Below are positions 3,006-56,925 of a stretch of DNA of 64,000 nt, in pieces (the stretch's first letter is position 1; each line of letters begins with the position of its first letter). This DNA is from Liolophura sinensis (Eukaryota > Mollusca > Polyplacophora > Chitonida > Chitonidae): NCBI RefSeq assembly GCF_032854445.1, contig NC_088302.1, positions 57,082,237 to 57,146,236 of the forward strand, read 5' to 3'. The position numbers and the translations under genes are program-made. The notes beneath the pieces were generated by a model. The model was not told where the DNA came from, made no database searches, and worked only from the letters and a program-made list of their open reading frames with translations.

Positions 3006-4128
3006 CAGCCAGCTTGTGGCAGTGACAATCAAAAAAAAAAAAAGGAATAGCAGTTCATGTGAAGTAAATATTCATTAACTATGTGCAGATAAAATGGTAA
3101 CATAAAGAAGAATCTGTCATGATGTAGCATAACCTCTGCTCATGACCACTAGGAGAAGGTTCATACAAGAGATTACATCCCTGGCTCAGGTCAAAGTTCA
3201 CACAAATCATACACATCTTCAAGTGTACATATACACACTAAGGGGAGAATAGCATCTGGGAATGTACATGTTCACATGTATGTTAACCTGTCCTGAACAA
3301 ATTCAGAGACAGGAAGACATATCATGGCAGTAATGAACACAAGGTTATTGCCTTTGTCATATGAGCAGTTTCCAGCCACAAAAGACTTACTCGCACAAGT
3401 TAAAGTCCCCTCAATATACAACATTGGCACTCACAAATGTAAAACTTCATGAAAAGCAAAATAGAGACCAAATATAACATAGCATACATGTTAAACTCTT
3501 GACTATCCAGTCTAGTAAATATGAAGCACCATAACAAAATAACATAGATGACATTCATTACAAAACATTTGCTAGAACATCATGACTTTCTCAATCAACA
3601 GAAATGAATCCTTCTGTGTGAAAGTCAGCTTAAAAGCAAAATAATACTGTTTTAATCCTCCTTTATATAAATTTATGTTTCTAAAATCTTATTTTCAAAT
3701 CTCGAGATGTAGACATAATTAACAAATACATGACTATGCCTCCCTAATGACGTCTGTAGAGAAAATTTAACACAGGTTTGCATAAAGCTTGAACACTGCA
3801 ATCCATGCAACATACATTATGAAAATATCTTTCACAATTTTGAACCAAACCTAACAATACACCCATGTAATGGTTGTATTTGACAATGATACAACCCTAT
3901 ACTTAGGGTCATCTGCAAATATCCACTTATCAAGCGCATTATCATTTATCTGAAGCTACAGAAAAGCTGTAACAACAAATTGGTCCCTTCAACAAGTTAC
4001 TATATATCCTCTACTTCCACTCTTTCAAAAAAACAGAATCCTGTCACGCATCATTGTCAAAAGGCAAAGTTAGGGAGCAGATTTAAGTAGGACTTCTGAT
4101 GACACCCGCTGACCAGGCTGACTGGTTG
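3006..4128. other. AT-rich sequence downstream of Rab30, probably including its 3' UTR
   Basis: Follows the Rab30 stop on the minus strand. No open frame, repeat or clear AATAAA signal stands out; the transcript end cannot be placed from sequence alone. Confidence 0.4.
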
Positions 4129-4380
4129 TTAGATCTTACAACAGCTGAAGGAAGATACTGTTGTGGCACTGCCAGGAGTAAAGCCTGCCTCTCCCTTGGG
4201 ACGCACTTCATTCTCGCGGGTTAATTTCGTCAGTTCTTTGCCAATTTCCAGAAAGAGTTTTTTCAACATTATCTGCTTCTTTGGCCGAAGTTTCCAGAAA
4301 GCGCATCTCGTAGCGCTGAGCAAACTGCTGTCCAATGGCTGTGGGTATCTCACGCCGGTTAATTTGATCCGTCTTGTTAC
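4129..4380 (-). CDS. RAB30: Rab30 terminal coding exon 4, with a one-base frameshift
   Basis: Begins (G)[11 protein letters not shown] after a TTTTGACCAG acceptor and contains ETSAK. The original frame reads to ...ADNVEK; conserved sequence ([12 protein letters not shown]... to SCCKI, stop at 4131-4129) then continues one frame over. The shift falls in a six-A run. Exon length 252 is one base more than the 251 that phase 1 requires. Confidence 0.88.
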   Translation of the reverse strand, partial: VTRRIKLTGVRYPQPLDSSLLSATRCAFWKLRPKKQIMLKKLFLEIGKELTKLTRENEVRPKGEAGFTPGSATTVSSFSCCKI

Positions 4381-7300
4381 CTGGTCAAAAGTAGAGGAAA
4401 ATGTAATCTGATCTGTTTTGTTACCTGGTCAAAAGTAGAGGAAAATGTAATCTGATCTGTCTTGTTACCTGGTCAAAAGTGGAGGAACATGTAATCTGAT
4501 CTGTCTTGTTACCTGGTCAAAAGTGGAGGAAAATGTTGTCTGATCTGTCCTGTTACCTGGTCAAAAGAAGAGGAAAATGTAATCTGATCTGTCTTGTTAC
4601 CTGGTCAAAAGTAGAGGAAAATGTAATCTGATCTGTCTTGTTACCTGGTCAAAAGTGGAGGAAAATGTAATCTGATCTGTCTTGTTACCTGGTCAAAAGT
4701 AGAGGAAAATGTAATCTGATCTGTCTTGTTACTTGGTCAAAAGTGGAGGAAAATGTTGTCTGATCTGTCCTGTTACCTGGTCAAAAGAAGAGGAAAATGT
4801 AATCTGATCTGTCTTGTTACCTGGTCAAAAGTAGAGGAAAATGTCATCTGATCTGTCTTGTTACCCGGTCAAAAATAAAGGAAAATGTCATCTGATCTGT
4901 CTTGTTACCTGGTCAAAAGTAGAGGAAAATGTAATCTGATCTGTCTTGTTACCTGGTCAAAAGTAGAGGAAAATGTAATCTGATCTGTCTTGTTACCTGG
5001 TCAAAAGTGGAGGAAAATGTCATCTGATCCGTCTTGTTACCTGGTCAAAAGCAGAGGAAAATGTCATCTGATCTGTCTTGTTACTTGGTCAAAAGTGGAG
5101 GAAAATGTAATCTGATCTGTCTTGTTACCTGGTCAAAAGTGGAGGAAAATGTAATCTGATCTGTCTTGTTACCTGGTCAAAAGTAGAGGAAAATGTCATC
5201 TGATCTGTCTTGTTACTTGGTCAAAAGTAGAGGAACATGTAATCTGATCTGTCTTGTTACCTGGTCAAAAGTAGAGGAAAATGTAATCTGATCTGTCTTG
5301 TTACCTGGTCAAAAGTGGAGGAAAATGTAATCTGATCTGTCTTGCTCCCTTTTCAAAAGTAGAGGAAAATGTAATCTGATCTGTCTTGTTACCTGGTCAA
5401 AAGTAGAGGAAAATGTGATCTGATCTGTCTTGTTACCTGGTCAAAAGTGGAGGAAAATGTGATCTGATCTGTCCTGTTACCTGGTCAAAAGTGGAGGAAA
5501 ATGTGATCTGATCTGTCCTGTTACCTGGTCAAAAGTGGAGGAACATGTAATCTGATCTGTCTTTGTTACCTGGTCAAAAGTGGAGGAAAATGTAATCTGA
5601 TCTGTCTTGTTACCTGGTCAAAAGTGGAGGAAAATGTAATCTGATCTGTCTTGTTACCTGGTCAAAAGAAGAGGAAAATGTAATCTGATCTGTCTTGTTA
5701 CCTGGTCAAAAGTAGAGGAAAATGTCATCTGATCTGTCTTGTCAAAAGCAGACAAAAATGTACAGTAAATAAAAAAGGAAACTTCTACAATAATGTGTTA
5801 ACATTATACATGTAAATATTCAACAGAGATCAATGAAAAAGACTTATGTAGTGTTGTTACACATGTATCAGGTGTTAATATCCTACCATCGCATAAAATA
5901 CGAAACACTCCATGATGTATTACTGTGTTGAATCTTGAAAATGTCCCTCAACTATCAAAACTAAAATCTTAACTCACAGCTGAAGGAACAGACAAACTGA
6001 GGAGCAGACAAACTGAGGAGCAGACAAACTGAGGAGCAAACAAACTGAGGAGCAAACAAACCGAGGAGCATGAAGTTTCTGCTAGTAAATAACTCTGTAA
6101 CTGCATTTATCTCTTACCTACTAAATATGTGAGGATATTCTTGCCAGCATAGTTCTCCATCTCAGTAATCCACTGGGGCAGGCTCTCAAATGAGTCTTGT
6201 AGGCAAACATCATATACAAGGATGAGGGCATTGGCAGAGCGGTAGTAACTCTGAGTGATGGACCGGAATCTCTCTTGGCCAGCAGTGTCCCAGATCTGTA
6301 ACTGTTCACATCAGTCTGCATTACAGTCAGTCATTCACATCAGTCCACATTACAGTCAACTGTTTACATCAGTCCACATTACAGTCAACTGTTCACATCA
6401 GTCCATATTACAGTCAACAGTTTACATCAGTCCTCATTACAGTCAACTGTTCACATCAGTCAATATTACATTTAATCTTTCACACCAGTGTAAAGTCAAC
6501 TGTTTACACCATTGTACATCACAGTCAAGTGTCCACATCAGTCTACATTACAGTTAGCTGTTCACATTACAGTCAACTGTTTACACCAGTCTACACTACT
6601 GTCAACTGTTCAGATCAGTCTACATGATGGTCAACCGTTCACATCAGTCTATATTATGGCCAACTGTTCACATCTGTCTGCATTACACTCAGCAGTTTGC
6701 ATCAGTCTATAGTACAATCAGCTGTTCACATCAGTCTTTATTACACTCAGATGTTTACATCAGTCTATATTATGGCCAACTGTTCACATCTGTCTGCTTT
6801 AAAATCAAGAGTTTGCATCAGTCTATAGTATAGTCAGCTGTTCACATCAGTCTGTATTACACTCAGATGTTTACATCAGTCTGTATTACACTCAGATGTC
6901 CACACCAGTCTGTATTACACTCAGATGTTCACATCAGTCTGTATTACACTCAGATGTTCACATCAGTCTGTATTACACTCAGATGTTCACATCAGTCTGT
7001 ATTACACTCAGATGTTCACATCAGTCTATATTACGCTCAGCTATTCACATCCATCTGCATTCCAATCAACTGTTCACATCAGACTATATTACGCTCAGCT
7101 TTTCAAAAGACTATATCACAGTCAGCCTTGATCTGCATTCCAGTCAACTGTTCACATTAGTCAGCATTATAGGGATATTTACCTTCACTGTCTCGATGAA
7201 TTCACTATATCTCAACAAAAAATTATACAGAAAAATTCTTCAGGATTTTTTCACCCAAATCTTCCTCCCTTGGCTACAGTGTTACGCCAGGACTGAAAAA

Positions 7301-8230
7301 CTTAGTCTCTTCACATAAGTGAACAATTTTTGAGCATTAAATCTGTCCAAGAGAAGAGTTTTCTCTTGAACACTAATTTTTCAAAAATCCAGTAACACTG
7401 GTTAACAAATATGTATATACTGTACATCCTTTGACATGTTCCACTCTCTAGTAATATCATATTAACAAACCTTTATTTTTTCACCGTCAATTTCCACAGT
7501 CTTAATCATGAAATCCACACCTATTGTGGCCCCTTGACCGGGTGGGAATAACCCCTGTACAGCAAAGAAAATATGGAATACATCAGTTGCTTTGTTGAAA
7601 ATTCAGTGTATAGGACACTTCGGATAAATGATTCCATTGCTTCCATCCTCCTCCTAAAGTTCTCGCCAAGAAACAATTGACGCTGCTCTCTTGTCTCTTA
7701 CATAAAGTTTGCAGGTGTCCGCTTGCCTTCCTTCCTTCGATATGAGGTAGATCTCTGCCACATGTGGAAAAGTTGGCTAGTCTAGCCATAGGTCTGCCAG
7801 TTTCCTCCACCCAGAAATCTGGCCACCATTGCAAGAGTGAAAAATTCTTCAGCATTGCATTCAAAACCAATCAAAAGCACATAAATAAATAAGTAAATTC
7901 TGGATGTTTTGCCCATTGTCACTGTTCATTCTTTATAAAAAGGTGGTCTTTTTTCTCTTTTTTAGTTACATGTTTCTTCTAAATTCATTGATTATTATCT
8001 AATCATGTTGCTACATCAACTATTTCATACACATGACTGAAAAGTGAATGGTTATAAAAATCATGATCAGAGTATATGGATGTTACGAAACAATGACGTT
8101 TTTTGTCAAAGCAAAATTCTACAAGTTTTATATTTTAAATTACCTGGGTGAATCTCCTCACTAGGCATGTTTTGCCAACACCTGCATTACCAATCAACAC
8201 CACCTTGAACAGGTATTTGTAATCTTCCAT
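4129..8230 (-). CDS. RAB30: Rab30 small GTPase gene, four coding exons, frame broken in the last exon
   Basis: Coding exons in gene order are 8144-8230, 7471-7554, 6118-6301 and 4129-4380, all with GT-AG junctions and matching phases (0, 0, 1). The product starts [20 protein letters not shown], the Rab30 N-terminus. Visible motifs are the P-loop GNAGVGKT (residues 14-21), switch I ATIGVDF (38-44), WDTAGQE (61-67), NKTD (120-123), ETSAK (148-152) and a C-terminal Cys-Cys for geranylgeranylation (ending SCCKI). If one surplus base in a run of six A's (plus positions 4258-4263) is ignored, the protein is 201 residues, close to the roughly 203 of vertebrate Rab30. As written, the frame shifts after Lys159 and soon stops, losing the prenylation site. 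Known role of the family: a Golgi-located Rab supporting Golgi integrity and autophagy. Introns 2 and 3 are filled with minisatellites touching the acceptors. A possible 5' UTR acceptor lies at 8297/8298. Identity is secure; whether the frameshift is real is not. Confidence 0.93.
4381..5747. repeat. 44-bp minisatellite made of the Rab30 exon 4 acceptor
   Basis: About 31 copies of a 44-bp unit. On the minus strand each copy holds ATTTTCCTCTACTTTTGACC followed by AG|GTAACAAGACAGATCAGATTA. The true junction is the same pyrimidine-rich tract and CCAG followed by exon bases GTAACAAGACGGATCAAATTA. Each unit is thus about half intron 3' end and half exon 5' end. The last unit merges into the real exon at 4380. 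Confidence 0.95.
6000..6075. repeat. Short 16-17-bp tandem repeat (GAGGAGCAGACAAACT)
   Basis: About five copies inside Rab30 intron 3, close to the donor of exon 3. Confidence 0.85.
6118..6301 (-). CDS. RAB30: Rab30 coding exon 3
   Basis: 61 codons plus one base, starting [20 protein letters not shown] and ending ...ILTYLV(G). Acceptor GTGAACAG directly abuts a 29-bp repeat array. Donor is GTAG|GTAAGAG. Confidence 0.92.
6302..7170. repeat. 29-bp minisatellite abutting the Rab30 exon 3 acceptor
   Basis: About 30 copies of ACTGTTCACATCAGTCYACA followed by TTACAGTCA (plus strand). On the coding strand the copies near the exon read GATGTGAACAG, identical to the real acceptor. Copies farther away change ACTGTTC to GATGTTC and so lose the AG. 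The array starts at the exon edge. Confidence 0.93.
7171..7470 (-). other. Remainder of Rab30 intron 2
   Basis: Unique sequence between the array and exon 2; nothing further seen. Confidence 0.5.
7471..7554 (-). CDS. RAB30: Rab30 coding exon 2
   Basis: 28 codons, [20 protein letters not shown] onward, covering switch I. Acceptor is TGTACAG, donor is AAG|GTTTGT. Phase 0 on both sides. Confidence 0.92.
7555..8143 (-). other. Rab30 intron 1
   Basis: 589 bases of apparently unique sequence. A 95-codon open frame on the minus strand here has no recognisable domain and is intronic. Confidence 0.6.
8144..8230 (-). CDS. RAB30: Rab30 coding exon 1
   Basis: 29 codons from ATG (8230-8228) to ...RRFTQ, ending in phase 0 at a CAG|GTAATT donor. 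It carries the whole P-loop. The start matches the conserved MEDY of Rab30. Confidence 0.92.
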
Positions 8231-9639
8231 GTTAAGACTGTATTTATCTGGCACTCTCCAGTGGGATTATATGTTATAGCACCAGTGTGTTGTGGATCTG
8301 CAATCAGGGACACATGTAAATAGTTACCCTTGTGAAAAGGCATGAAGTGCTATACACATGCAGTGGGTACACATTCCGTGTTAATATAGAAGACCACAGG
8401 CTCAGGTAACACTATATACATCTGTGCATTATAATACATGTTTGTCTGATCTACATACATTACATCTGGTCAGTTTTAATACAAATGTTATACTATATTG
8501 GTATCTGCACCTACAAGTATTATGAGTACATAAACACAAGAAATCATACACTTGTTTTGGTCCAGCTAGACTGCTGTACAAAAGTCAGAGCGACAACCTG
8601 TAAGCATAATAAATGTGTAACTTAAATAATTATTCAAGATTCATGGCACTGTTTCTGTGATTTTAGGAAGGTTTTCATCGACTTAACTTAAAGGACAATC
8701 TGAAATATTCAATCAATAAACTGGATTACATTAACGAGTAAACCACAAAATGTTTAAATTACAAGCTAACTAATGTCTTGCAAGACTTACAGACAAATGT
8801 CTTTAAAAGCATACCAATGTCTTCAGAAACTACATGTACAAACATTAAACAGCACAATGGTTATGAATTAAACGAAAACAATTAGCTAAAAATAAACTGA
8901 CACATATGTATTAGCTTGCATCTGCTCTAGTCCTTGAAGGTAATTCACCGAGTGTGTTATTCTAGAGTAATTTGGAATCCTGTCATATATTATCAATGTA
9001 TCTTCCCACCAATGACTCGGATAAAGTAAAACAATACACTGTGTCTTGCTAGGCAAGCTTTTACTTCTTATCTGGGATTAAGATAGACGTTTGTCTTCAT
9101 CCCATCTCTAACAGCGTTACATTCCAAGATAAGAAAGGAAAAGGAATGATCGAAAACCTTGTGATACCAGCTAATTAATAGTCTCTCAAATGATAATTAT
9201 ACTGAAACTTTTGTCAATAATATAGGAATCTAATCTCTCCCGTTCCCCTCGTATCAGCAGATTAAAACTCCTTCTTCTTTTCAACACAGTAGTATTACCA
9301 TATCATGACTACACAAAAAAGATCCATGGGCATAACAACCATTGAGTCATTCAACAACAACAACAACACAACCGGATCTGCGTTTGCTCGTTTTAGTCTG
9401 CAAGACAAATTTGTTATCACGTCTGCATTACCATCAAAACCATGAGAATTGATCTCATCAGAAGCAAAGCCTTGTGAAAGACAGTGTATATGACATAGCT
9501 GAGCTCGACAGCTTTCACTTGTTGACGATGATTTTTGTGATGAGGATGTAAATAATGCAGGCCTCGCCCTCAGCGAGCAGAATGCTTCTTTCAACTCCCC
9601 GTGTCAACTACTACAAACTCCTCACACTGATAAGAACAC
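8231..9639. other. Rab30 upstream region
   Basis: No coding sequence recognised. On the minus strand a CTGATTGCAG at about 8298 could be the acceptor of a 5' UTR exon containing the start codon, implying a noncoding first exon farther upstream. A short CAA-type microsatellite lies near 9353-9370. Confidence 0.4.
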
Positions 9640-9995
9640 TTATTGCCGAATTTGCGCATTTCGTAACTTTCAAGCTTCGACATAGGCTACATGTACATGC
9701 ATGGCCTAAAGTTAAAAAAAATAGATAAGAATTCAGGTAAACTGGCATGATACACAATTTGCGCATCTCTTAACTTTCAGATTTCGACATACGTGTGTAC
9801 ATGAAGCCTAGGCCTATATGGACTAACGAGATACGGTACCGGTAACAACAAAGGTAAGCTGATATGACAGACATGACAATCTTGAGGATGCCTACATGTA
9901 GGCATAGACCCCAAACACTAAGAAAAGAGGGAAAACAAGCTATGGCAGTTATCTTCAAGACATACACATGTATGTCGAAATCTGAAAGTTGTAGG
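9640..9995. mobile_element. Small foldback element with a duplicated left arm
   Basis: Left arm ACTTTCAGATTTCGACATAC (9773 onward) is matched in reverse complement by 9961-9990. A second, diverged left arm with the same TTTGCGCAT lead-in lies about 107 bp upstream (9652-9700). No transposase is inside; it looks non-autonomous. Confidence 0.6.
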
Positions 9996-10051
9996 CAAGA
10001 ATTCCAGACATGATGTTTGTAGGCGTATAAGCCAGTCACGCTAGTTTGCCA

Positions 10052-10619
10052 CCGGGCTACGGTGGTCCATATGCGACATTTTCCTTTTTCTGAACTTTTG
10101 TAACTTTTTGTTAGATGTCTACCAGGGTGAAAACGCGGTGTAAACAGTTTTCACTTAGGTGGAAACTCACGTGCGCTTTTACCAAGGTGGAAAACAAACG
10201 TGAGTTTTGACCCAGTTGGAAACCGACGAGAGTTTTCACCCAGGTGGAAACTCACGTGACACAAGAAGTTCTCGTTTCCGTGGGCAGCCGAACTTAAGGA
10301 CGGGTTATTAATGGAAAATGCAATTATTTTGACAACAGATGAAATTTTGGGGACACTATAGGGAGGTCATGTAGAATTCCATGTGACTTGTTTCATCCAC
10401 GCCTTTCTCCGTCATGTTGAAGTTCTTACATGTTGTAGTTCATCATCATTCTGCCCACGGATACGAGAACGAGGCTTCTTGCATCACGTGAGTTTCCACC
10501 TGGTTTCCACTAACACGTTTTCACCTGGGTGGAAACGGTTTTCACCCAGGTGGAAACCTAACAAAAAGTTACAAAAGTTAAAAAAACAAAAAAGGATAAT
10601 GTGGGCCACCATACCGGGC
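10052..10619. mobile_element. Long foldback (MITE-like) element, about 570 bp
   Basis: A perfect 22-bp inverted repeat lies at 10093-10114 and 10558-10579 (core AACTTTTGTAACTTTTTG). Homology continues outward (CCGGGCTACGGTGG against CCACCATACCGG) and inward: CACGTGACACAAGAAG at about 10254 pairs with CTTCTTGCATCACGTG at about 10475, and the GTGGGCAG/CTGCCCAC blocks also pair. The arms also carry repeated CACCCAGGTGGAAAC palindromes. No open frame of note. Confidence 0.8.
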
Positions 10620-10711
10620 ATATCGATGGGAATTCTAACCTGTGTGCATGTACAAGTCCATATAGGCCTATTTAAATACGCATTTCAATACTAAAAAAAT
10701 AGTACGTGTAC

Positions 10712-10780
10712 ATGCAGGTTTCCTCAGGGTGGTAGACGTGGGTGGAAGGTCTCCCAGCAACCTTTGGATGGTCGTGCGTT
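10712..10780 (+). mobile_element. SINE body fragment
   Basis: GGAAGGTCTCCCAGCAACCT followed by a GGATGGTCGTG motif matches the central body of the full SINE at 28926-29203. Both ends are lost. Confidence 0.6.
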
Positions 10781-10799
10781 TCCATTCCTGCCAACACAA

Positions 10800-11095
10800 A
10801 CATCTTGGCCCCGTGTAGGACCAAGATGGGCTGCACTCTGGGCCCCGGTTGGGATGCCCATGTGGGGCTATGAGGAATTTGTCACTGGGCCCTATGGTGG
10901 CCCCGAGTGGGCAAGCCCAGATGGGCTCTTAGATGGGTCCAATGTCGGTCCATTCTGGGCTAGCCCATACAGGCTTTATATGGGTGTACGAGGAGTCCCC
11001 TCTGGGCTAGCTCTTATACGTTTATATGGGTTCGAGGTGTGCGCATTCTGGGCTAGCCCGTCTGGGATTCATATGGGTCCACGGTGGTTCTGTTA
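10800..11095. repeat. Degenerate GGGCTAGCCC/ATGGG-type tandem repeat
   Basis: Irregular repetition of TGGGCTAGCCC and ATGGGTCC words, giving a Trp/Gly/Pro-rich 110-codon open frame (10764-11096) with recurring WASP words. The open frame looks like a by-product of the repeat. Confidence 0.55.
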
Positions 11096-12008
11096 GCTAA
11101 TATATGCTAAATGTGTGTCCACAATGGACTGTTTCCACAGACACGCCCCAGTCAAGGTAAACAATAATCAACAACCAATCAAGTATTCACAATGAAAATT
11201 TCATTGCTTTCTGTAATGCTCATCGTTGTCGGCAGATAAAATATTGACTTATTTGACTGCTTTAACGCTGTGTTGAAGAATTTTTGGCCAGCACAATGGG
11301 TTTCAGTTTTATGGGTGGAGGAAATTGGATTGCCCGGAGTAAACCAGACCTCTGGCAAGTTACTGATGAATGGTGGGCTTCTACATTAAATGGCCACATA
11401 AGCGTCGCTGACCGATTATTGTCACGAAGGTCCCATGAGCAATGAGAGAGGGGGTGTCCACAAATTCTCTTTGTACAGCTGGGTTTGAAGACACACCCAG
11501 TGTATTCCGGCGATTGAAGAGCACGAACTACTTACAGCTAAAATAAAACAAAACTTGGCATGTAGATGATCAAAATTCGTATTCAAAACACAACTTCAGT
11601 TTCACAGAATAGTAACAGTAGAGGGGTGCCCTCTGGCTTTTGCAGCTCGTAAGGCCCGGTTTCCATTCCGGTTCCATGGAACACAGCGCGTTCCATGTCC
11701 TTTTCGTGACAGTGGCTGTTGCAATTGTGTTGCGCTTATTGGAACCTGTATTTTATAAACTAACAGCCCAGCATAGCCCATCTCAAACCAGCAAGAATCC
11801 CACTGATTATCTTTATCTCACCATAATGGATTTATTTTATGATGTAGATATGTCATTTAAAAAACCTGACATTATACCATAAATGTTTCATGTCCGTTTG
11901 TATCCCACATGAAAGTCCAGGCACAGCCCTGGCCCATCTAAGTCTAGTCTGCCCAGCAATATCCCGCATGGGCCCAAGCTGGACATGATCACTGGGATGC
12001 GGCTCTGT
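11096..12008. other. Intergenic sequence without recognised gene
   Basis: An 80-codon open frame at 11640-11882 has no recognisable domain. GC-rich TGGGCC/CCCAGC words near 11920-11990 resemble the preceding repeat. Confidence 0.4.
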
Positions 12009-12117
12009 CGGCTTTCCCCCCATCATAATATTGACTGCCGTGATATTTTTATAGGCCTCTGAGTGAAATATTCTTGAGTATGGCGTAGAACACCAATCAA
12101 ATAAATAAATAAATAAA
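12009..12117 (+). mobile_element. SINE 3' tail, decayed
   Basis: GTGAAATATTCTTGAGTATG, then CACCAATCAAATAAATAAAT, matches the 3' end of the SINE family at 28926. Confidence 0.75.
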
Positions 12118-12307
12118 TACTACGGTATATGCATAATGATTATATGCACGAATTCTACATGGAGATCTATAATGCCATGTGTCACGTACAGACGAAGACA
12201 AGTGAAGTTAGTCCCTGGTTAGGAGAAACATATATATGAACAGCTGCATGTACGTATTTACTGTATTTTACTGTATTGTCCATATGAAGCTACGTGCAGG
12301 CAGGCCA

Positions 12308-12362
12308 GCATCATGGCGGGAGGAAACCCACGACCACCCGCAGGTTGCAGGCCTTCCCACAT
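12308..12362 (-). mobile_element. SINE body fragment, reverse orientation
   Basis: Reverse complement of the GGTCTGCAACCTGCGG and GGTCGTGGGTTTCC part of the same SINE family. Confidence 0.65.
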
Positions 12363-13019
12363 GATATATATGCCTGTAGCAGGCCTACATAATATCGTGC
12401 CGGCATGTCTGGAACAAGGCTATCAATTGCTGAGGACGCGTGGTATCTCGGTCTTTGCATCTTACTGATAGCGGTATTTATCATACACTTCATGTAGGCC
12501 TACATGTACACCTGAAGGTCCTACGTACACACTCAACAATGTTCCAAGCTCCAGGTCACAGCTATACAGGACACAGCTAAAACTGCCACCAATGTCAGAA
12601 TATAGTTTATCTTTCGTTATGTCGTAAGATATTAATAGGCCTATTTATTTTCATATCTTTGCTATCACGTAAAATTAGTCAATGCATGCTTGAAATATCT
12701 TTGGAAGAGTATATCTGTTATTTTAGTCCCATGTTAATCCGATATATGGGCCTACTTATACGTCTGGCTTTAATTTCCGGCTTACATGCCCTAAGGGAAT
12801 AAGCCCATACACACCCATGTAAAATAAATTAACTCATATATGTAAATGTGAGCTGGAGCGTGAGTAATCTCCCGACAGAATCCAAATGTCTGAGCATTAT
12901 ACATACTGACATAATTAACAATATCGTAGGGCTGAAAGTGGCGAAATGCAAACATATGGACGTGAGGGAGATGCTGTCATGGAGTAAAATTATGGGTATG
13001 CACACATGGGGTACATTGA
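12363..13019. other. Intergenic sequence, nothing recognised
   Basis: No gene, RNA or clear repeat seen. Confidence 0.4.
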
Positions 13020-13790
13020 TGAGTATGCACACAAAATTATGAGTATGCACACATGGGGTACATTGATGAGTATGCACACATATATGATCTCATAGGGTAA
13101 AGGGATGAGTATGCACACATAGGGTACAATTATGGGTATGCACGGTATACGGGAGTTTTTCCTCACGTTAAAGGGGGGTTCTTCCTCACGATATATGGGT
13201 TTTCTTCATTCTATGTGCACTAAAGTTCTTCATCCCGGTACAAAGAATTTCTTCTTTCCGGTATACAGGAGTTCTTCCTTACGTTATGCGGCTATTTTTC
13301 CTCCGGGCTCTTCTTCTCCGTAGACGGGAGCTCTTCTTCTCGGTAGACGGGAGTTCTTCCTTCCGGTACACGGGAGTTCTTCTCAGTGCACTGGAGTTCT
13401 TCCTCCCAGTACACGTGAGTTCTTCCTCCGGGTGTACGGGAGTTTTTCCTCACGTTATACAGGAGTTTTTCCTCCGTGTATGCAGGAGTTCTTCTTCTCG
13501 GTAGACGAAAGTGTTTCTCGGTGCACAGGAGTTCTTCTTCTCAGTAGACAGGAGTTCTTCCTCCCGGTACACCGGAGTTCTTCCTCCCGAAACAAGGAAG
13601 TTCATCTTCAGAGTATTGGCATATGGGAATTCTTCTTCTTGGTAGGCGGGAGTTCTTCCTCTTCGTGGACGAGAGTTCTTCCTCAGGTTATACGGGAATT
13701 TTAGATTCATGAGAGTATAGGAAGTTCGTCTTCACGGTATACGGGAGTTCGTTACTTCGATAAACAGGAGTTACTAGTATTTACCGCGGT
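13020..13790. repeat. Two adjoining minisatellites (GAGTATGCACACA and CGGGAGTTCTTCCTC types)
   Basis: 13020-13140 repeats a GAGTATGCACACATGGGGTA word. 13140-13790 repeats roughly 24-bp GGTATACGGGAGTTCTTCCT units with much divergence. Open frames on both strands here are repeat by-products. Confidence 0.85.
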
Positions 13791-14049
13791 ATTCTGGAAT
13801 TCTAACTTCCTCGCGGTGTACAGGAACCCTTCCTGATCGTAGTTCTGCCTACAATATACCCTAGTTTTTCAACCACCTGGGCAACCAATATTTTGAACGA
13901 TTCTGGAAGAACTATGGATTGTAGAGAAGTAATTTCAGTTTTGTGCATCTTGAATGAGACAAAAAAATCATTTCCATAATAATTCTATGCATGAATTCTA
14001 CTAATGACGTGCTTTAGTGATTGAAAAGGTTGAAGATACAGGAGTTTGC

Positions 14050-14490
14050 ATACTTATGATGTGGGCCATGAGACCATACCTGCATACTCATGATAGCATG
14101 TGGCTCATGAGGCCATAAGTGCATACTCATGATAGCATGTTGTTCACGAGGCCATACTTGCATACTTATGATAGCATGTGGCTTATGAGGCCATGCGTGC
14201 ATACTCATGGTAGCATGTGGCTCATGAGGCCATATGTGCATACTCATGATAGCATGTTGTTCACGAGGCCATACTTGCATACTTATGATAGCATATGGCT
14301 CATGAGACCATGCGTGCATACTCATGGTAGCATGTGGCTCATGAGGCCATACGTGCATACTCATGGTAGCATGTGGCTCATGAGGCCATACGTGCATACT
14401 CATGATAGCACGTGGGTCATGAGATCATGGCATGTGGCTCATAACGCCATGCGTGCATACTCATCACAGCATGTTCCTCATGGGCATACT
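14050..14490. repeat. 39-bp minisatellite, about 11 copies
   Basis: Units contain ATAGCATGTGGCTCATGAGG and GTGCATACTCATG. The resulting MHxWPHEP-like open frames on both strands are not genes. Confidence 0.92.
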
Positions 14491-14974
14491 CATCATTGTG
14501 TATCACCACATTGTACATTGTGTCAGTGTACATACATAACATGAATACAGCGGCGCACTGTTTATAAAAAAAATGGGTTGATATGGTTACATGCTACAAA
14601 TGTGATCAACCCATGACTACGAATTTAGACACCGAAATTAGCAGGTGTACTTGAACGGCATTTCCGCAATCCTGTGTCAAACTTTAAAAGATTATCAAAG
14701 ATTGTCAAAGATTATCTCTGTATAAAAGTGATAACACTCGGAATGGTATGCGGTACATTGCAAATTTAGCCACGGCTCATTCTGTATTCGTTTGGTTGAT
14801 CATGCATAGCAAATAAAATACATTTTTAGATATTAACGGTGTCATTGTCCTACAAAATCCCACTGATGGTCATTTAACAACTCTAAATCACAAACCAAGT
14901 AAACTTAGAGTCAAATTCTTCTTGTTTGGTTACTGCACACTTCTTCATTCCAAAGTGTGAAGTAAGTGAGTACA
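14491..14974. other. Intergenic spacer between two arrays
   Basis: Unique AT-rich sequence; nothing recognised. Confidence 0.4.
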
Positions 14975-15670
14975 TACAACGTATACATGTGTACAGAGTA
15001 TAACGCCACAGCGTATGCATGTGTACACAGTATAACGCCACAGCGTATACATGTGTACAGAGTAGAGCACCACACCGTATAAATGTGTACACAGTATAAC
15101 GCCGCAGCGTATACATGTGTACAGAGTAGAGCACCACACCGTATAAATGTGTACACAGTATAACGCCACAGCGTATACATGTGTACAGAGTAGAACACCA
15201 CACCGTATAAATGTGTACACAGTATAACGCCACAGCATATACATGTGTACAGAGTAGAGCACCACACCGTATAAATGTGTACACAGTATAACGCCACAGC
15301 GTATACATGTGTAAAGAGTAGAGCACCACACCGTATAAATGTGTACACAGTATAACGCCACGGCGTATACATGTGTACAGAGTAGAACACCACACCGTAT
15401 AAATGTGTACACAGTATAACGCCACAGCATATACGGGTACTGAGTATGACGCCACAGCGTATACATGTGTATAGAGTATAGCTCCACATGTAGCGTATGC
15501 ATGCGTACAGAGTAGAACAACACACCGTATAAATGCGTACACAGTATAACGCCACAGCGTACACATGTGTACAGAGTATAGCGCCACATGCAGCGTATAC
15601 GTGTGTACAGAGTAGAACAACACAGCGTATAAATGAGTACAGAGTATAACACCACAGCCTATATACGTGT
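14975..15670. repeat. 64-bp dimeric higher-order repeat (two 32-bp monomers)
   Basis: Monomer A (TATAACGCCACAGCGTATAC ... ATGTGTAC) alternates with monomer B (AGAGTAGARCACCACACCGT ... AATGTGTAC) over about 11 dimers. Stop-free on the minus strand in three frames, giving spurious 217-263-codon open frames. Confidence 0.92.
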
Positions 15671-16484
15671 ACACAAGTACTTGTTTAGGCCTCCATCAGA
15701 ACGTACAGCCAATGGGTGGATCTATTAACCTGGGACTATTATACACCGGCACATGTTACGTGTGTAACTGTTAACACGGGATTTTAACTTGAACTAATAC
15801 TATCATAATTGGAGAAAATGCTTCATTATTTATATATCGGTGAAATCCCAGTATTTCCTTCACTGATACAAATGATATCTTCACCAGTTAGATATCACTC
15901 TTGTTATTACATTTTGCTATTACACTGCTGGAGACCTTCACCCATGACCCACAGTTGACCTTGCCGGAACTACTTTCGTACACGCCGTCAGCTACATTCA
16001 CGCCTGGTGTGTAATATTCGTGAACCGCATCACAAGGTCGTCCACCTCCGCGCAATATATAGTTCGCAAAAAAAAGAAGTACAAATTTTTCATGTACTTC
16101 ATTTAAGTAAATACCTATATTGCATTACCATGAAGCACCTTTGTAGAATGTAGAATTACTTACAGACAGCATTTAAAACTGTATAAAGGTTTTGTGAGCG
16201 CGGACGTGAACGAAATTGCAGCGCGTATGAATAGAATCAGAAATACAACGAAGATGGCACATTGCTGATTTTTTTCTGGGATGCAACAGATAAACCGATG
16301 CGCATTTATATACATGGAAAGAAAATGTCAGGAAAGAAATAATAAATAGAATATTGCATAGTGAAAGTCGAATATTGTTCTCACTCGAACAATATTTATG
16401 GTATTCAACCTTCACTGAGCAATATCCTCTATGTAGGCCTATTATCGTACAAGAAACTCAAAGACAGAAGAATGACCGCGTTTT

Positions 16485-16487
<3 letters not shown>
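15671..16487. other. Intergenic sequence, nothing recognised
   Basis: No gene or clear repeat. Confidence 0.4.

Positions 16488-16554
<67 letters not shown>
16488..16554. repeat. (TA)n microsatellite
   Basis: About 33 uninterrupted TA dinucleotides. Confidence 0.97.
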
Positions 16555-16558
<4 letters not shown>

Positions 16559-18670
16559 GTTGAAAATGTGATTGCTCACCCAGAATGTACATCTTGGTTG
16601 ACGGCTGGTATACAAATATCTGTTTCGACACAAAGCGTCTTTCAAGTCGAAGACTCTTTTGAAACCGACCAACACACTACTCCCCTGATATTCCAATACT
16701 AGGAGAGCTGACAGAGAAATCATGGAGCACTGTGCTTTGGAATTAAGTGGAGCTGAGCAGGAATCGCCATTGTTCTCAGCAAGGGGAATCAGTCCCTAGG
16801 ACGTCCAGAATTTCTTTCGCTCTGCTTCTTGGTAGAGGCCAGAATCCTTGGCGCTCTGCTTCATGATTGCGTCTAATTCCGATTCACCCGGGGCTCGGGG
16901 CTGAATTAGATCGTCATATTGGATATATGAACGGTTGCATCAAAGCGCAGCTGAGACACATATGTATGTTTTTATCGACAGCTAGCATGATACACGCCTT
17001 TGAATACTGATTTCACCCCATGCGCCTTGAACAAACAAGTTACTGCGCCTTTCCATCACTGAAAACTGTTGACTATCTCTCTGAATGATTCCGTCCTTCG
17101 TATATTTTTTTTACTTTTTTGGTAGTTTGTGTTGGACGTGGTTTTGGGAACGTCCATCTTGGTTGATGGCTGGTATACGAATGTCTGTTTCGGTGTATGG
17201 ACTCGTCAGCATATAATTGGCTCGGAATTTCAATCAACTCGGTCCATTGATTTAACTCCTATTTTGAACAGCGTGGTCATTATATGCACACAAGGGGACA
17301 GTGAAGGCCCGTATCTAAGTTTTCTAAACATTAAATGAAAAGATTTCACATTTAAGGTGATGATCAATGAAGTATCAAGGATCGAAATGCTGTCAATGCT
17401 TATAGACGCGGAATATCTTTTGATAAGAAATGGTAATCAATACACATCGCCAAATTCCACTCTACTGCACTTTGTAATCACGAAACAGTGTTAGGCAATA
17501 GCAAAATCTCTGCTTGGGAAAAAGGGAGCATCATCCAGTCTGGCTGGTTTATTCATCCTTTGACTCTTACAGGCTTTCTTATACAGTTATATTTCCCACT
17601 AACAAATAGCAAGAAATAAAACTTTACCGATATGTACACAGAAATATTGAACTGACAAATTAAAACTTACAGCAACTTCAGGTATCCTTTGGGATACTTT
17701 GTCTATAAATTCAACATATACAAACCCTGACAGACCGTGACATGTACAACACGGTAAGGAAACCTCCCAAAAGAAGGCCAGTAGACACATTGTACATTGG
17801 CAGGAGAAGAAATTAGGCAATTGTCAGGACACAGCTATCATGGACAGATAAATCATAAAAGATTGAACATCAACCACACATATTTATGTCTGCATTTTCC
17901 AATCACAATAACCAGTGACATCTGGAAACTTTCTTAAATACCAAAAGTATCCACATGTAAGCAAATACTAAAACTTGGTCCCACATAAAACACTGGAAGC
18001 AACTACTTTAAGCTACAGTTTATGGGTCAATGGGTGATATCTCTAGTAATATATGTAGTAATAATAATAATAATAATAATATTTACATTTACAAATAATT
18101 CCAAAGTATAAGTACCTATTACAATATATTAGAATCTGTGAACAACACCTATTATCTTTCAATATCCACAGAGTATGATATCCAGGGAATGTGGTATCCA
18201 TGGAGTGTGGTATACAGAGAGTGTTATTGTGTGGTATCTTGGAGTAGCACATCAACAGAGAAGGAAAAAAAAAGAAAAGCACCAGCCTTTTTATTCAGTC
18301 AATTTAAGTGATCAAAAAAAAAAGACACCTCCTGGAAACTATTGTCTGTCCCTAATTGACTCAAGCTTATCTCTTCCGTTCATCAATTTTTCTTACCTTT
18401 TCAAGTCAGACTCATTAGTCAACAGTCATGTATGACTTCGGTTTCTATAGAAGCAATTGTCTTGGATCTATGTTCTATGTTTACATTTTGTTCTTGACAC
18501 AACACAGTCCCTTTCCCAATAAAACAATTACATGCACATGTTCCAATTAACTCCCTAGCTCCACGCCCCCCCCCCCCCCCCCCCCACTCCCCTCAACACC
18601 GCCCAGACTGTGTGAAAATTTGGATCAAATTGTTTGTATAACACTGGCACTTTTCTATTACATTTCAATG
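16555..18670. other. Intergenic sequence with microsatellites
   Basis: Contains an imperfect duplication of about 45 bp (16587-16635 and 17155-17200, core GGCTGGTATAC), a (TAA)n run at 18056-18081 and a 20-base C run at 18566-18585. No gene recognised. Confidence 0.5.
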
Positions 18671-19035
18671 TAACATAATTACATTTCAACACAAGAACAT
18701 TTCTAAGGTACAGCGATCACTGTTACCATCACTGTCAAATACACGCATTTTCTAAAATGGTCAGACCAAAAGCATCATTTTATACAATACTAACATAATT
18801 ACATTTCAACACAAGAACATTTCTAAGGTACAGCGATCACTGTTACCATCACTGTCAAATACACGCATTTTCTAAAATGGTCAGACCAAAAGCATCATTT
18901 TATACAATACTAACATAATTACATTTCAACACAAGAACATTTCTAAGGTACAGCGATCACTGTTACCATCACTGTCAAATACACGCATTTTCTAAAATGG
19001 TCAGACCAAAAGCATCATTTTATACAATACTAACA
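18671..19035. repeat. Perfect 120-bp tandem triplicate
   Basis: Three copies beginning TAACATAATTACATTTCAAC at 18671, 18791 and 18911 with no mismatch that I can see, plus the start of a fourth at 19031. Confidence 0.97.
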
Positions 19036-19655
19036 TAATTACATTTATTGCATTGTGACATGATCTCTTTAACTCTGTAAATCAATGCTAATTTTCACAA
19101 AATTCATCTTTCCAAGTTTCTGTACAAGCAGGAAGACACATGTAAGGCTTCCTCACTCTATACGGTAACACTACTTTTCTCATCTCAACTTCTGCCACAT
19201 GGTCATCTGCTAACTAGTCAGCAATATCAAGAGAATCTTTAAACGACAAAGCAATATAAAATCTTTGCAAGATAAGTCACAAATATACTGATGTTCCCTG
19301 ACATCCTCAAAAGTCATATGTCCTTTCCTGGAACATAATATGACGATTCATATTTAGTTCATATCATGTTCATTTCTTGTCACAGCCATGCCCAACTTTT
19401 TTGTCTTAACAATACTTGATTAGTTCGAGCTCACCATTTTGCACTTCCACATATCTCTTTGTAAAACCATAAGCACTCCAATAAGGACTCCAATACAATA
19501 TTAAAATAGCACAAGTTAACTATTCATTTAAATTAAATGTATTTCTGTTCATATGAAAATTTTAATGGCATAATAGATATATGTCGCAGTAAAGGAAAAA
19601 CAACTTAGCATCTGAAAGTAATCCTTCCACAATTACATTGTGTATATGATTACCA
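19036..19655. other. Spacer between arrays
   Basis: AT-rich, nothing recognised. Confidence 0.4.
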
Positions 19656-20670
19656 CACCTGTGATCGCTATACAACTGTACACCTGGAAAGTGATCATTA
19701 CACAAGCCTATACCTGCAAAGTGATCACTCTACAATTGTTCACCTGTAAAGTGATCGCCATATAACTGTACACCAGTAAAGTGATTGTTATACAACTGTA
19801 CACTGGTAAAGTGATTGTTATACAACTGTACATTGGTAATGTGATCATCACCTGTAAAGTGATTGCTATACACCTGTACACCTACAAAGTGCTCACTACT
19901 CAACTGTACACCTGTAAATTGATTGTAACACAATATACACCAGCAAAGTGATCATTATACAACTGTGCACAGGTAAAGTGATCATCATACAATTGAACAC
20001 CTGTAAAGAGATCGTTATACAAGTGTACACCTGTAAAGTCATCGTTACACATCTGTACACCTGTAAAGTGATGATTATACAGCTGTACACTTGTAAAGTG
20101 ATGGTTATACAGCTGTGCACCTGTATGGTGATTAGTATACAGTTGTACACTGGTAAAGTGATCATTATGCAACTGTACACCTGTAAAGAGATCATTATAC
20201 AACTGTACACCTGTAAAGTGATCGTTATACAACTGTACACCTGCATAGTGATCAGTGTTTGCTACAAACTGTACGCCTGTAAAGTGATCATCATACAACT
20301 GTACACCTGTAAAGTGATCATTATACAACTGTACACCTGTAAAGTCATCGTTACACATCTGTACACCTGTAAAGTGATGATTATACAGCTGTACACTTGT
20401 AAAGTGATCGTTATACAGCTGTGCACCTGTATGGTGATTAGTATACAGTTGTACACTGGTAAAGTGATCATTATGCAACTGTACACCTGTAAAGAGATCA
20501 TTATACAACTGTACACCTGTAGAGTGATCATTATACAACTGTACACCTGTAGAGTGATCATTATACAACTGTACACCTGTAAAGTGATCATTATAGAACT
20601 GTACACTGGTAAAGTGGTCATTATACAACTGTACACTGGTAAAGTGGTCACCATATAACTGTACACATGA
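19656..20670. repeat. 30-bp minisatellite with a 306-bp higher-order duplication
   Basis: Units of TACAACTGTACACCTGTAAA then GTGATCATTA, about 33 copies. A variant block starting at 20035 (AAAGTCATCGTTACACATC) recurs at 20341, so roughly ten units were duplicated together. It lies downstream of Rab33. Confidence 0.93.
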
Positions 20671-21084
20671 CTCTTCCATAGTTGTACATATGTGCAGTCT
20701 CCCAAGAAAGAAACACAAAGATGGCACATGGTGTTGACACCAGATGCTGAGAACAATGTCCATTTGTGACCTGATGCCATTGCTGAATGAGGTTGTGTTG
20801 CTAGTTTTATTATTACATTTTAGCATTCTCATTGTGTGACTAGGCTGACAGTGACAGCTTATTAATTAATTATCCTGCTCTGATTTAATGCAGATATATC
20901 CTGTGAAAAGTTATCTCTGTGTTTCTTTTCTTGGCACCCTAAATACGACCTTTCTACAACTGCACACCTATCAAAATGACTATAAAATGACCCTTGTACA
21001 AGTGTACACCTGTATTCAATAAAAATACAATACTATACCTGCAAATGGAAATTACCCCACTGTACACGTGTATATGTACATCAG
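20671..21084. other. Spacer between two arrays downstream of Rab33
   Basis: Contains a TTTATT at 20807-20812, i.e. AATAAA on the minus strand, a possible distal Rab33 polyadenylation signal. Confidence 0.35.
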
Positions 21085-21830
21085 CATATGACCAATACAC
21101 AAGTTTGCACGATGCTCACATAGCAATGCCTTACCAGTCCCCAATTGTACAACTGTCAAGATACTTACGCTATCTGATACATTTGGGTGTGCACGATGCC
21201 CACATAACAATGCCTTACCAGTCCCCAATTGTACAACTGTCAAGATACTTATGCTATCTGATACATTTGGGTGTGCACGATGCCCACATAACAACGCCTT
21301 ACCAGTCCACAATTGTACAACTGTACAAGATACTTATGCTATCTGATACATTTGGGTGTGCACGATGCCCACATAACAATGCCTTACCAGTCCACAATTG
21401 TACAACTGTGCAAGATACTTGCGCTATCTGATACATTTGGGTGTGCACGATGCCCACATAACAACGCCTTACCCTTCCACAATTGTACAACTGTACAAGA
21501 TATTTGCGCTATCTGATACATTTGGGTGTGCACGATGCCCACATAACAACGCTTTACCCTTCCACAATTGTACAACTGTACATGATACTTACGCTATCCG
21601 ATACATTTGGGTGTGCACGATGCCCACATAACAACGCCTTACCCTTCCACAATTGTACAACTGTACATGATACTTACGCTATCTGATACATTTGGGTGTG
21701 CACGATGCCCACATAACAACGCTTTACCCTTCCACAATTGTACAACTGTACAAGATACTTACGCTATCCGATACATTTGGGTGTGCACAATGCCCACATA
21801 ACAACGCCTTACCAGTCCACAATAATATGA
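21085..21830. repeat. 84-85-bp minisatellite downstream of Rab33
   Basis: About nine copies containing TTTGGGTGTGCACGATGCCC and CACAATTGTACAACTGT, ending about 200 bp past the Rab33 stop, possibly within its 3' UTR. Confidence 0.95.
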
Positions 21831-22027
21831 TTATTTAATGTCATCTTTAAGTAACTATGAGACAACAACTTACTTTACCACTTCACCAGACACCCTCATA
21901 ATTCCCACCGTCATGCTCTAGCCGGTGTACAATGGAATAGATAATAATACTACGTGTATGTACACAATGTCTATTATATCAGTTTGTATCCAACAGTATG
22001 TACATATCAGTATTGTGTCACAGTCAG

Positions 22028-22522
22028 TTAACATGCACAACTGTCCTTCTTCTCCTCATCAGCAGGGTGTAGATTTGCCTGGCTAAGGTTTCCACCTACA
22101 TTAATGATTCGTGATGGCTGCTCAGGGGAGTTAAATCTGGAGAGATAAGCCGGCATCATTGGCTTGGAATTTTTTAGCTTATGGGCTAGAGTGATGAATA
22201 TTGCTTCCACGTGGTCAGCTTTCTCATCATCTTTCGCAGAAGTTTCAAACAAAGGCATGTTGTGCGAGTCTGCAAACTTTTGAGCCATATTTGTGTTAAC
22301 GGCAATTTTATCCTTAACATCACACTTGTTGCCGACCAAAATACGAGGAATGTCTGTATTGAGGTTATGCCGATCACATTCCTCAATCCACTGAGGCATA
22401 TTATCAAAGGAACTCATCTTTGTGACATCATACACGAAGACGACCGCATGAACATTTCTGTAATAATGCTGTACCATGCTCTTTCGAAATCTCTCCTGGC
22501 CAGCCGTGTCCCATAGTTGTAG
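22028..22522 (-). CDS. RAB33B: Rab33 coding exon 2
   Basis: Residues 91-254 from [15 protein letters not shown] to DSCAC and a TAA stop at 22030-22028. Acceptor is TTTGTTGTAG. The intron position, just before [10 protein letters not shown], is the same site as Rab30 intron 2. Confidence 0.95.
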
Positions 22523-25491: not shown

Positions 25492-27058
25492 CCCTGGTGA
25501 ATAAAATGGGAATATCACATTAATTGTAAATATAAATGAGTCAGATCAAAAATAATCTGAAAATCACCTCGCTGCTGTCATCATCGCCTTCACCAGTCAC
25601 CAGTCAGACAGTCTATTCGCTTCCGGGTCATCTGTTATTGACACATATAGAATAGTCTTGCAAACCAGACCGAGAGAGACAAGACAGTGTTTTTATCCAA
25701 GGGCAGGCACACCGCGAAATACGTCACGCTAGAAAAGATGCTTCATGTTGCATTTGAAATAATATAATTTCATAATCATGACAAAGTTACTATTTTAAGT
25801 GAGTGAGTGAGTGCGTGCTTGGGGTTTAACGTCGTACTTAACAATTCTTCAGTCATATGACGACGAACGAATACTTAAAGTGCATGTAATGTGCCTCCTT
25901 GTTTCAGGATAGATTTTCACCGCTCTTTTATCTAGTGTTGCTTCACTGAAACGAAGGTAAGTAAGCCGCCCCGCTCGAGCCATTATACTGATCACAGGTC
26001 AACCAGTCGTTGCACTATCCCCTTCATGCTGAACGCCAAGCGAGGAAGGTGCAACTTCCTCTTTTAAGGTCTTAGAAGTGACTCGACCCAGGATTGACCC
26101 TGGATCTACCACTCCTGAAGCAGACGCTCTACAATTTTTTTTGAAGTCAATCATCTGTTGGTAGAAACGTCGATTTACACATGTATCAATTTCATTTTTC
26201 AGTTAAAACCAAGGTTACTACATATACCAACATTCCATGGGTTTTTTTTGACATAAGTTATAAAGTGCATTTCTGTCACACCACGGCAGCTATCACATTT
26301 CGCGATATTAGTTCCTGAGGCGTTAAACTACGAGAGGTGACCAGGATCTCGTATGCAGCATAAGGGTTATACATCTCACGACAGCTGCATGTATTTTAAT
26401 GTACTAGGCAGCAGAATGTTGCTATTTGAGAGTCACAGAATTATCGATATATCTTAAATAAAGTCCATGTTTTTCAACCTAACTGAAATATAAAGGTGTA
26501 CATACACGTTCGTACTTTGTCAGCCTACATGTACAGCTTTGTTGTGAAAGGCTTAACCATTTATTTTATCATGGGCTTCCAAATAAGTTTACAAAAGTAA
26601 AATCGGTCTTGGCGCTATGTCCTAAGCCATTTTCCATTTTCAGATGCCCCACCGAACCACAGTTTGCTTTTAAAAAATCGCCATTTACAGTGGAATAATC
26701 TCAGGGGAGGTAATTCGGTATAGCCCTATTTCGATCAACAAATACCTGTCTACTTATTCGACAGGAAGTTTGGTAAAACTGTTGCGTGGTAGTCTAAAAT
26801 TATACAAAATGTTGGAGAACTTGAACGATATTCAGATTTATTCTTGACTGGATAACATAAGTGGGTTTTTTTGTCAACTATGCTAAAATTTTTTGACACA
26901 ATATCGCTATTTTTGACAAAATGTAAGTCTCGTCTGCTCGAGATTTAGGGGCTGGTTACACTGTCGCCATATTGAAAATTACCACCACGAGGTGCTTCCT
27001 TTGGGTTGGAAGTGTTTAGAACCAAAATAGTCACAGTTTGGGGCATTGGGTGTCAAGA
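25492..27058. promoter_or_regulatory. Divergent Rab33/NAA15 upstream region
   Basis: 1.57 kb between the two start codons, presumably holding both promoters; the SINE at 25799-26134 sits in it. No TATA box or other element can be assigned with confidence. Confidence 0.45.
25799..26134 (-). mobile_element. SINE family 1, second copy, 5'-truncated
   Basis: Same body and (CACT)n tail as the copy at 24624, truncated inside the tRNA-like head (ends at GTAGAGCGTCTGCTTC on the minus strand). It lies in the Rab33-NAA15 intergenic region. Confidence 0.9.

Positions 27059-56925
<29,867 letters not shown>

What the first reader, a model, noticed from the sequence alone, without database searches (positions are those of the whole stretch)
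4129..56925. Hypothesis: minisatellites in this genome are preferentially born at exon-intron junctions
Of 24 introns in three genes, at least four have duplications that include exonic bases and a splice site (Rab30 intron 3; NAA15 introns 7, 8 and 12). Three more arrays abut or nearly abut an acceptor (Rab30 intron 2; NAA15 introns 5 and 16), and two lie within 80 bases of a junction (NAA15 introns 14 and 19). Random placement in introns averaging over 1 kb would rarely include exon sequence. Possible causes are R-loop or replication slippage at splice sites, or tolerance because extra AG/GT sites shield the real one. I do not know this as a described system.
Basis: inference. Interest (0 to 1): 0.82.

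Follow-up and report, generated by a model that had tools for sequence, protein, structure and literature searches.

The report
Chiton minisatellites spanning exon-intron junctions
In a chiton, tandem repeats inside genes sometimes include the end of an exon and its splice site copied many times over, as seen before in amphioxus, but a test on other genes does not show that such repeats clearly prefer these places.

Summary
The anatomy is real. The window lies in the chiton Liolophura (assembly match). In its 24 introns I confirm four tandem duplications that contain exonic bases plus a splice site (RAB30 i3; NAA15 i7, i8, i12), one array that supplies the acceptor AG (RAB30 i2), and arrays 7, 25, 43 and 88 bp from a junction.

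In 31 other genes (217 of 237 introns resolved) 6 of 37 arrays, in five genes, hold at least 10 exonic bases. So such repeats recur in this genome. They match the 'mirages' described in amphioxus; a mollusc is new in the searches I made.

The inference fails as argued. A unit of about 50 bp placed at random in introns of 500-800 bp often straddles a junction: 3.5 of 37 expected, 6 seen (1.7-fold, P=0.11). A wider criterion (within 25 bp) gives P=0.011.

Best reading: ordinary local tandem duplication with near-random breakpoints, tolerated at junctions because the exon-proximal splice site still works although decoys often score as high. A preference up to about 3.7-fold is not excluded.

The parts
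4360..5742 (-). RAB30 intron 3 minisatellite (44-bp unit, about 31 copies) running through the acceptor into exon 4; 21 exonic bp; exon 4 starts at 4380, intron 6117-4381
6300..7126 (-). RAB30 intron 2 minisatellite (29/58-bp unit); its last unit supplies the acceptor AG at 6303-6302; exon 3 starts at 6301
5984..6070 (-). small 16-bp array in RAB30 intron 3, 47 bp from the donor (exon 3 ends at 6118)
30689..31289 (+). NAA15 intron 5 array (40-bp unit), 7 bp from the acceptor (exon starts 31297)
31910..33394 (+). NAA15 intron 7 array (40/70-bp units), contains the last 36 bp of the exon ending 31945 and the donor; GT in 39 of 41 aligned copies, authentic included
33600..33783 (+). NAA15 intron 8: decayed two-copy tandem duplication; first copy about 33600-33692 holds exonic 33600-33678 and the donor, second copy begins about 33693
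37761..39755 (+). NAA15 intron 12 array (110-bp unit, 18 copies), contains the last 33 bp of the exon ending 37793 and the donor; GT in 18 of 18 copies, authentic included
41838..42989 (+). NAA15 intron 14: two neighbouring arrays, nearest edge 88 bp from the acceptor (exon starts 43078)
45200..45842 (+). NAA15 intron 16 array (58-bp unit), 25 bp from the acceptor (exon starts 45868)
47182..56017 (+). NAA15 intron 19 array (17-bp unit, about 518 copies), 43 bp from the donor (exon ends 47138)

Best explanation
These are mirage-like arrays. A short stretch of gene is duplicated head to tail by ordinary local tandem duplication, with breakpoints falling roughly evenly over introns and exon margins, and then grows. 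When the founding unit straddles a junction, every new copy carries an exon end and a splice site. The allele survives because the copy next to the exon still makes the correct splice, so the protein is unchanged although many decoys lie in the intron. Shown: the anatomy, its recurrence in other genes, units found only at their own locus (four arrays tested), decoys that often score as high as the authentic site. Inferred: the duplication mechanism, correct splicing in the animal, and tolerance as the reason for survival.
For: Straddling arrays in 3 of 10 window TRF arrays and 6 of 37 in the independent sample, not far from what uniform birth of a unit of that length gives (1.34 and 3.48). In the independent sample founding units cover 1.29% of collapsed intron bases, and 6 of 434 junctions (1.4%) lie inside an array with at least 10 exonic bp. 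The exonic share of the unit ranges from 0.27 to 0.90 and does not differ from uniform (KS P=0.41, n=10, some shares approximate), as random breakpoints predict. Copies are found only at their own locus for the four window arrays tested. GT/AG in decoys not kept beyond other dinucleotides (9 arrays, P=0.31). The exon-proximal donor gives the best fit to the conserved protein, and in 6 of 7 donor-side TRF arrays reading past it meets a stop within 1-107 bases.
Against: Every ratio in the pooled independent sample lies above 1 (1.67-1.75) and the 25-bp criterion reaches P=0.011. Purifying selection against straddlers would make the true birth rate at junctions higher than seen. The parts differ: CCT/HSPD1 4 of 18, MCM/proteasome 2 of 13, aaRS 0 of 6. 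Six of 9 arrays keep the splice dinucleotide in every aligned decoy. No RNA data, no polymorphism data, one assembly.
Confidence: 0.6

Rival explanations
1. Preferential birth: tandem duplications start more often at exon-intron junctions, for instance through R-loops or stalled replication at splice sites, above all on the donor side.
For: Independent sample 14 arrays overlapping or within 25 bp against 7.98 expected, P=0.011; all loci 20 against 10.71, P=0.0008, but that includes the discovery window. Donor side 8 against acceptor side 2 with NAA15 i8 counted (P=0.11); independent sample 5 against 1 (P=0.22).
Against: Exonic share of units looks random.
Confidence: 0.25
2. Selection keeps junction-spanning copies because extra splice sites buffer or regulate splicing (shielding, alternative isoforms).
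For: Most aligned copies keep GT or AG, and in 6 of 9 arrays all decoys do; the CCT3 i11 array is open in frame for 432 bp past the donor.
Against: Splice dinucleotides are not better kept than other dinucleotides of the unit (P=0.31); CCT6 i4 decoys keep GT in only 0.41. In 6 of 7 donor-side TRF arrays decoy use would meet an early stop.
Confidence: 0.06
3. The arrays are dispersed satellites or mobile repeats that inserted next to exons.
For: The genome is rich in arrays: 17.0% of sampled intron bases.
Against: Units hold exon sequence of their own gene, and the four window arrays searched match only their own locus (one candidate region was scored each time, so weaker copies could be missed; no array of the independent sample was searched).
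Confidence: 0.03
4. Artefact of assembly or of exon placement.
For: One assembly at 14x HiFi (PMC11068029, passages seen); CCT1 shows apparent frameshifts; junctions rest on homology only, and one (NAA15 intron 11 acceptor) was set one base too early in the scripts.
Against: Two detection methods find the same nine arrays with at least 10 exonic bases, and nothing in 80,000 bp of Markov-1 random sequence; mismatched-intron control 0; recurs in five other genes.
Confidence: 0.03

Closest known systems
Amphioxus 'mirages' (Adh3, troponin C, globins BflGb6 and BflGb9, PGBD5; PMC3087553 and PMC3902484, passages seen)
   Same: Minisatellite-like tandem duplications across exon-intron boundaries, on donor or acceptor side, units of about 10-160 bp, splice signals in many but not all copies
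   Different: Here in a mollusc; correct splicing and length instability, reported for amphioxus, are untested here; here measured against a null over 241 introns
[quoted passage not shown] potato RdRp, PMC4974935, passages seen)
   Same: Tandem duplication that multiplies AG/GT signals in a gene
   Different: In the arrays seen the copies lie inside an existing intron and no new intron is shown; intron positions were not compared across species
Ordinary intronic minisatellites
   Same: Local tandem arrays; units private to the locus in the four tested
   Different: The founding unit includes an exon end and a splice site

Membership tests
amphioxus mirages | tandem array spanning an exon-intron boundary | tested here: met
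   3 of 10 window TRF arrays plus NAA15 i8, 6 of 37 independent arrays
amphioxus mirages | unit length in the minisatellite range (10-160 bp) | tested here: met
   the nine TRF straddlers have units of 36-120 bp, except CCT5 with 218 by TRF and 109 by self-comparison
amphioxus mirages | splice signals in many but not all copies | tested here: met
   GT or AG in 7/7, 5/6, 11/12, 10/21, 39/41, 18/18, 27/31, 44/44, 4/4 aligned copies of the nine arrays, authentic site included
amphioxus mirages | regular mRNA splicing despite the copies | not testable with these tools
   no RNA data; inferred from protein homology only
amphioxus mirages | length instability between haplotypes or somatic | not testable with these tools
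   one assembly held
amphioxus mirages | occurrence in a cephalochordate (the reports seen are from amphioxus) | tested here: not met
   mollusc: eight haemocyanin beta-sandwich hits, assembly match. I therefore call them mirage-like; taxon is not a structural feature
intron gain by tandem duplication | a new intron arises within a former exon | not tested
   no ortholog intron map was made
dispersed satellite insertion | unit present elsewhere in the genome | tested here: not met
   four of four window arrays searched match only their own locus, one candidate region scored each

The most novel reading that the evidence does not exclude
Birth of minisatellites is truly raised two- to four-fold at exon-intron junctions, mainly at donors, by a process tied to transcription or splicing, in a mollusc as well as in amphioxus; it would be a general route by which introns lengthen and splice sites multiply.
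Probability: 0.22. Interest if true: 0.72.

Novelty: new member of a known kind. Interest (0 to 1): 0.45.

Why it matters
If it holds genome-wide, the chiton offers many natural constructs in which one correct splice site sits beside several similar decoys (3 to 43 aligned copies in the nine arrays), some scoring at least as high as the real one (NAA15 i12: 7 of 17). That makes the rule of splice-site choice directly testable in vivo. It also shows that mirage-like arrays are not confined to amphioxus, and gives a null model that any claim of a preference must beat.

Tried and rejected
Amphioxus as the source: suggested by the mirage papers; rejected by the haemocyanin hits and the assembly match. 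The GFP family gave no hit, which is weak: the search is exon by exon and the family rang in no control.

Naive null (arrays never touch exons): rejected because it ignores that a founding unit may straddle; replaced by a null that collapses each array to one unit and varied over thresholds and unit definitions.

Codon-phase signal: TRF units of the donor-side arrays are of mixed phase; not tested formally. Splice-site retention above other positions: a first ranking ignored ties; redone with mid-ranks, P=0.31.

Rows dropped: 20 of 237 candidate introns in the independent sample (4 of 86 CCT/HSPD1 by gap or doubtful fit; 9 of 115 MCM/proteasome and 7 of 36 aaRS by gap or model score below 20). 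TRF arrays with score below 80 or period below 10 were left out of the main count; with score 50 the independent sample has 49 arrays and 6 against 3.5. Of 13 proteasome loci I took 10: the seven with two or more hits and three of six with one. Two Cpn60-family hits in long open frames were not taken. NAA15 i8 is not in the TRF counts.

Error found on checking: the acceptor of NAA15 intron 11 was set at 37467 and should be 37468; no TRF array with period 7 or more lies there.

Full report
What the window is. G000 has 609,464,459 bases in 632 contigs. The chiton assembly published as Liolophura japonica has 609,495,693 bases in 632 scaffolds (PMC11068029, passages seen), later corrected to L. 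sinensis (PMC12441733, whole text). The totals differ by 31,234 bases, which I did not explain. Five contig lengths of G000 (96,433,062; 37,343,639; 28,395,274; 27,489,247; 19,479,325) equal lengths printed in that paper. Eight matches to the molluscan haemocyanin beta-sandwich family agree.

Genes. RAB30 (best PDB match Rab-30; junctions read, set), RAB33 (Rab-33B) and NAA15 (20 introns). Junctions were placed by tblastn with recalled human proteins plus frame and splice signals, in RAB30 and RAB33 by eye; no transcript supports them.

The observation. Four duplications contain exonic bases and a splice site, one array supplies the acceptor, four lie 7-88 bp away. Details are in the observation field.

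Independent test. I located other genes by family search and cut 31 stretches by exon position, before looking at their repeats: CCT1-8 and HSPD1; MCM2-7 and two further MCM genes (called MCM8/9-like by elimination only) with ten proteasome subunits; four class I aminoacyl-tRNA synthetases. The second batch was chosen after the first had been analysed. Of 237 candidate introns 217 were resolved. TRF (score at least 80, period at least 10) gave 37 arrays. Six, in five genes, hold at least 10 exonic bases: CCT5 i7 (97 bp), CCT3 i9 (25) and i11 (44), CCT6 i4 (23), MCM6 i3 (64), all donor side, and the MCM8/9-like L021 i4 (17, acceptor side). Three more touch within 5 bp: CCT3 i1 acceptor, CCT6 i2 and CCT8 i11 donor.

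Not chance similarity. A second, ungapped self-comparison (offsets 20-400) found the same nine straddlers of window and sample, and nothing in 80,000 bp of Markov-1 random sequence. Local alignment of up to 60 exonic bases at each end against the adjacent intron (241 introns, 482 ends, threshold 34) gave 8 donor-side and 1 acceptor-side matches; one random pairing with introns of other genes gave 0 and 0, reverse complements 0 and 1. At threshold 46 it is 6 and 0, with the reverse-complement acceptor match still there. RAB30 i3 is not among the matches; only 21 exonic bases are copied there.

Not a strong preference. I collapsed each array to one unit, allowed the unit to fall anywhere with at least 10 intronic bases, and computed the chance to hold exonic bases. 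Independent sample: at least 10 exonic bases 6 against 3.48 (P=0.11); at least 1, 8 against 4.62 (P=0.068); exonic or within 5 bp, 9 against 5.39 (P=0.066); within 25 bp, 14 against 7.98 (P=0.011). Window alone: 3 against 1.34 (P=0.12). All: 9 against 4.82 (P=0.034), 13 against 7.32 within 5 bp (P=0.017), 20 against 10.71 within 25 bp (P=0.0008), but these include the discovery set. Over score thresholds 50-300 and two unit definitions the independent ratio for at least 10 exonic bases stays between about 1.4 and 2.0, P 0.06 to 0.27. With 20 bp added to the best period, in the 31 arrays then at hand, it is 6 against 5.53 (P=0.49). Standard exact Poisson limits for 6 seen (2.2-13.1, recalled) give 0.6- to 3.7-fold. 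The tests are correlated and uncorrected for number. The null knows no selection; if straddlers are often harmful, births at junctions are commoner than counted.

Mechanism. Units match only their own locus in four of four window arrays searched (one candidate region scored each), so they were probably born in place. The exonic share of the unit (10 cases, some approximate) is compatible with uniform. Six of nine arrays keep GT or AG in every aligned decoy, three do not; ranked against other dinucleotides of the same unit this is unremarkable (P=0.31). Decoys often score at least as high as the authentic donor: NAA15 i12 7 of 17, CCT3 i11 10 of 10, MCM6 i3 3 of 3, but CCT3 i9 1 of 5, CCT6 i4 4 of 21, NAA15 i7 14 of 39, CCT5 i7 3 of 6 (recalled generic weights). 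In 6 of 7 donor-side TRF arrays reading past the authentic donor meets a stop within 1-107 bases; CCT3 i11 stays open for 432. So correct choice of the exon-proximal site must be the rule, or wrong products are removed; neither is shown. The excess of donor over acceptor cases (8 to 2 with NAA15 i8, P=0.11; independent 5 to 1, P=0.22) would fit tolerance: for a donor the first copy transcribed is the right one, for an acceptor it is the last. That is inference.

Literature. 'Mirages' in amphioxus globins, Adh3, troponin C and PGBD5 (PMC3087553, passages; PMC3902484, passages). The original Adh paper (Canestro 2002) is not held. Intron gain by tandem duplication: PMC4974935 (passages). Earthworm metallothionein genes have intronic minisatellites and fourth-exon duplications absent from the final transcript (PMC12783039, passages), worth checking as a further case. 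C. elegans minisatellites near alternative exons: PMC4039745 (passages). My searches listed, by title and start of abstract, no report of junction-spanning minisatellites in molluscs; I opened only the papers named here, and the library holds open-licence papers only, so this is not proof.

Verdict. Real, recurrent, of a known kind in a new phylum; the claimed preference is unproven and at most moderate.

Noticed in passing
window 4381-5742 (RAB30 intron 3): Many units read TTTTGACCAG|GTAACAAG, an acceptor joined to a donor-like GTAA, which resembles a recursive-splicing site (resemblance recalled); 27 of 31 aligned copies keep the AG.
   Followed up: no
window 47182-56017: A 17-bp unit repeated about 518 times makes NAA15 intron 19 9.2 kb long.
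   Followed up: no
window 37794-39755: The authentic NAA15 i12 donor (CTCGG|GTATGA, score 2.5) scores no higher than 7 of 17 decoys (up to 7.2).
   Followed up: partly
L005, about 3750-3940: A CCT1 exon shows apparent frameshifts: sequencing error or a damaged copy.
   Followed up: no
L006, 7483-8337 on the reverse complement: CCT3 i11: 66-bp in-frame unit open for 432 bp past the donor; decoy use would insert 22 residues per copy.
   Followed up: partly
G000 C8:37880506-37891931 (L002 is a part): Eight haemocyanin beta-sandwich hits in 11.4 kb, an eight-unit haemocyanin gene by appearance.
   Followed up: no
sampled introns of 34 genes: Tandem arrays make up 33,217 of 195,055 intron bases (17.0%), in 40 of 241 introns.
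   Followed up: yes
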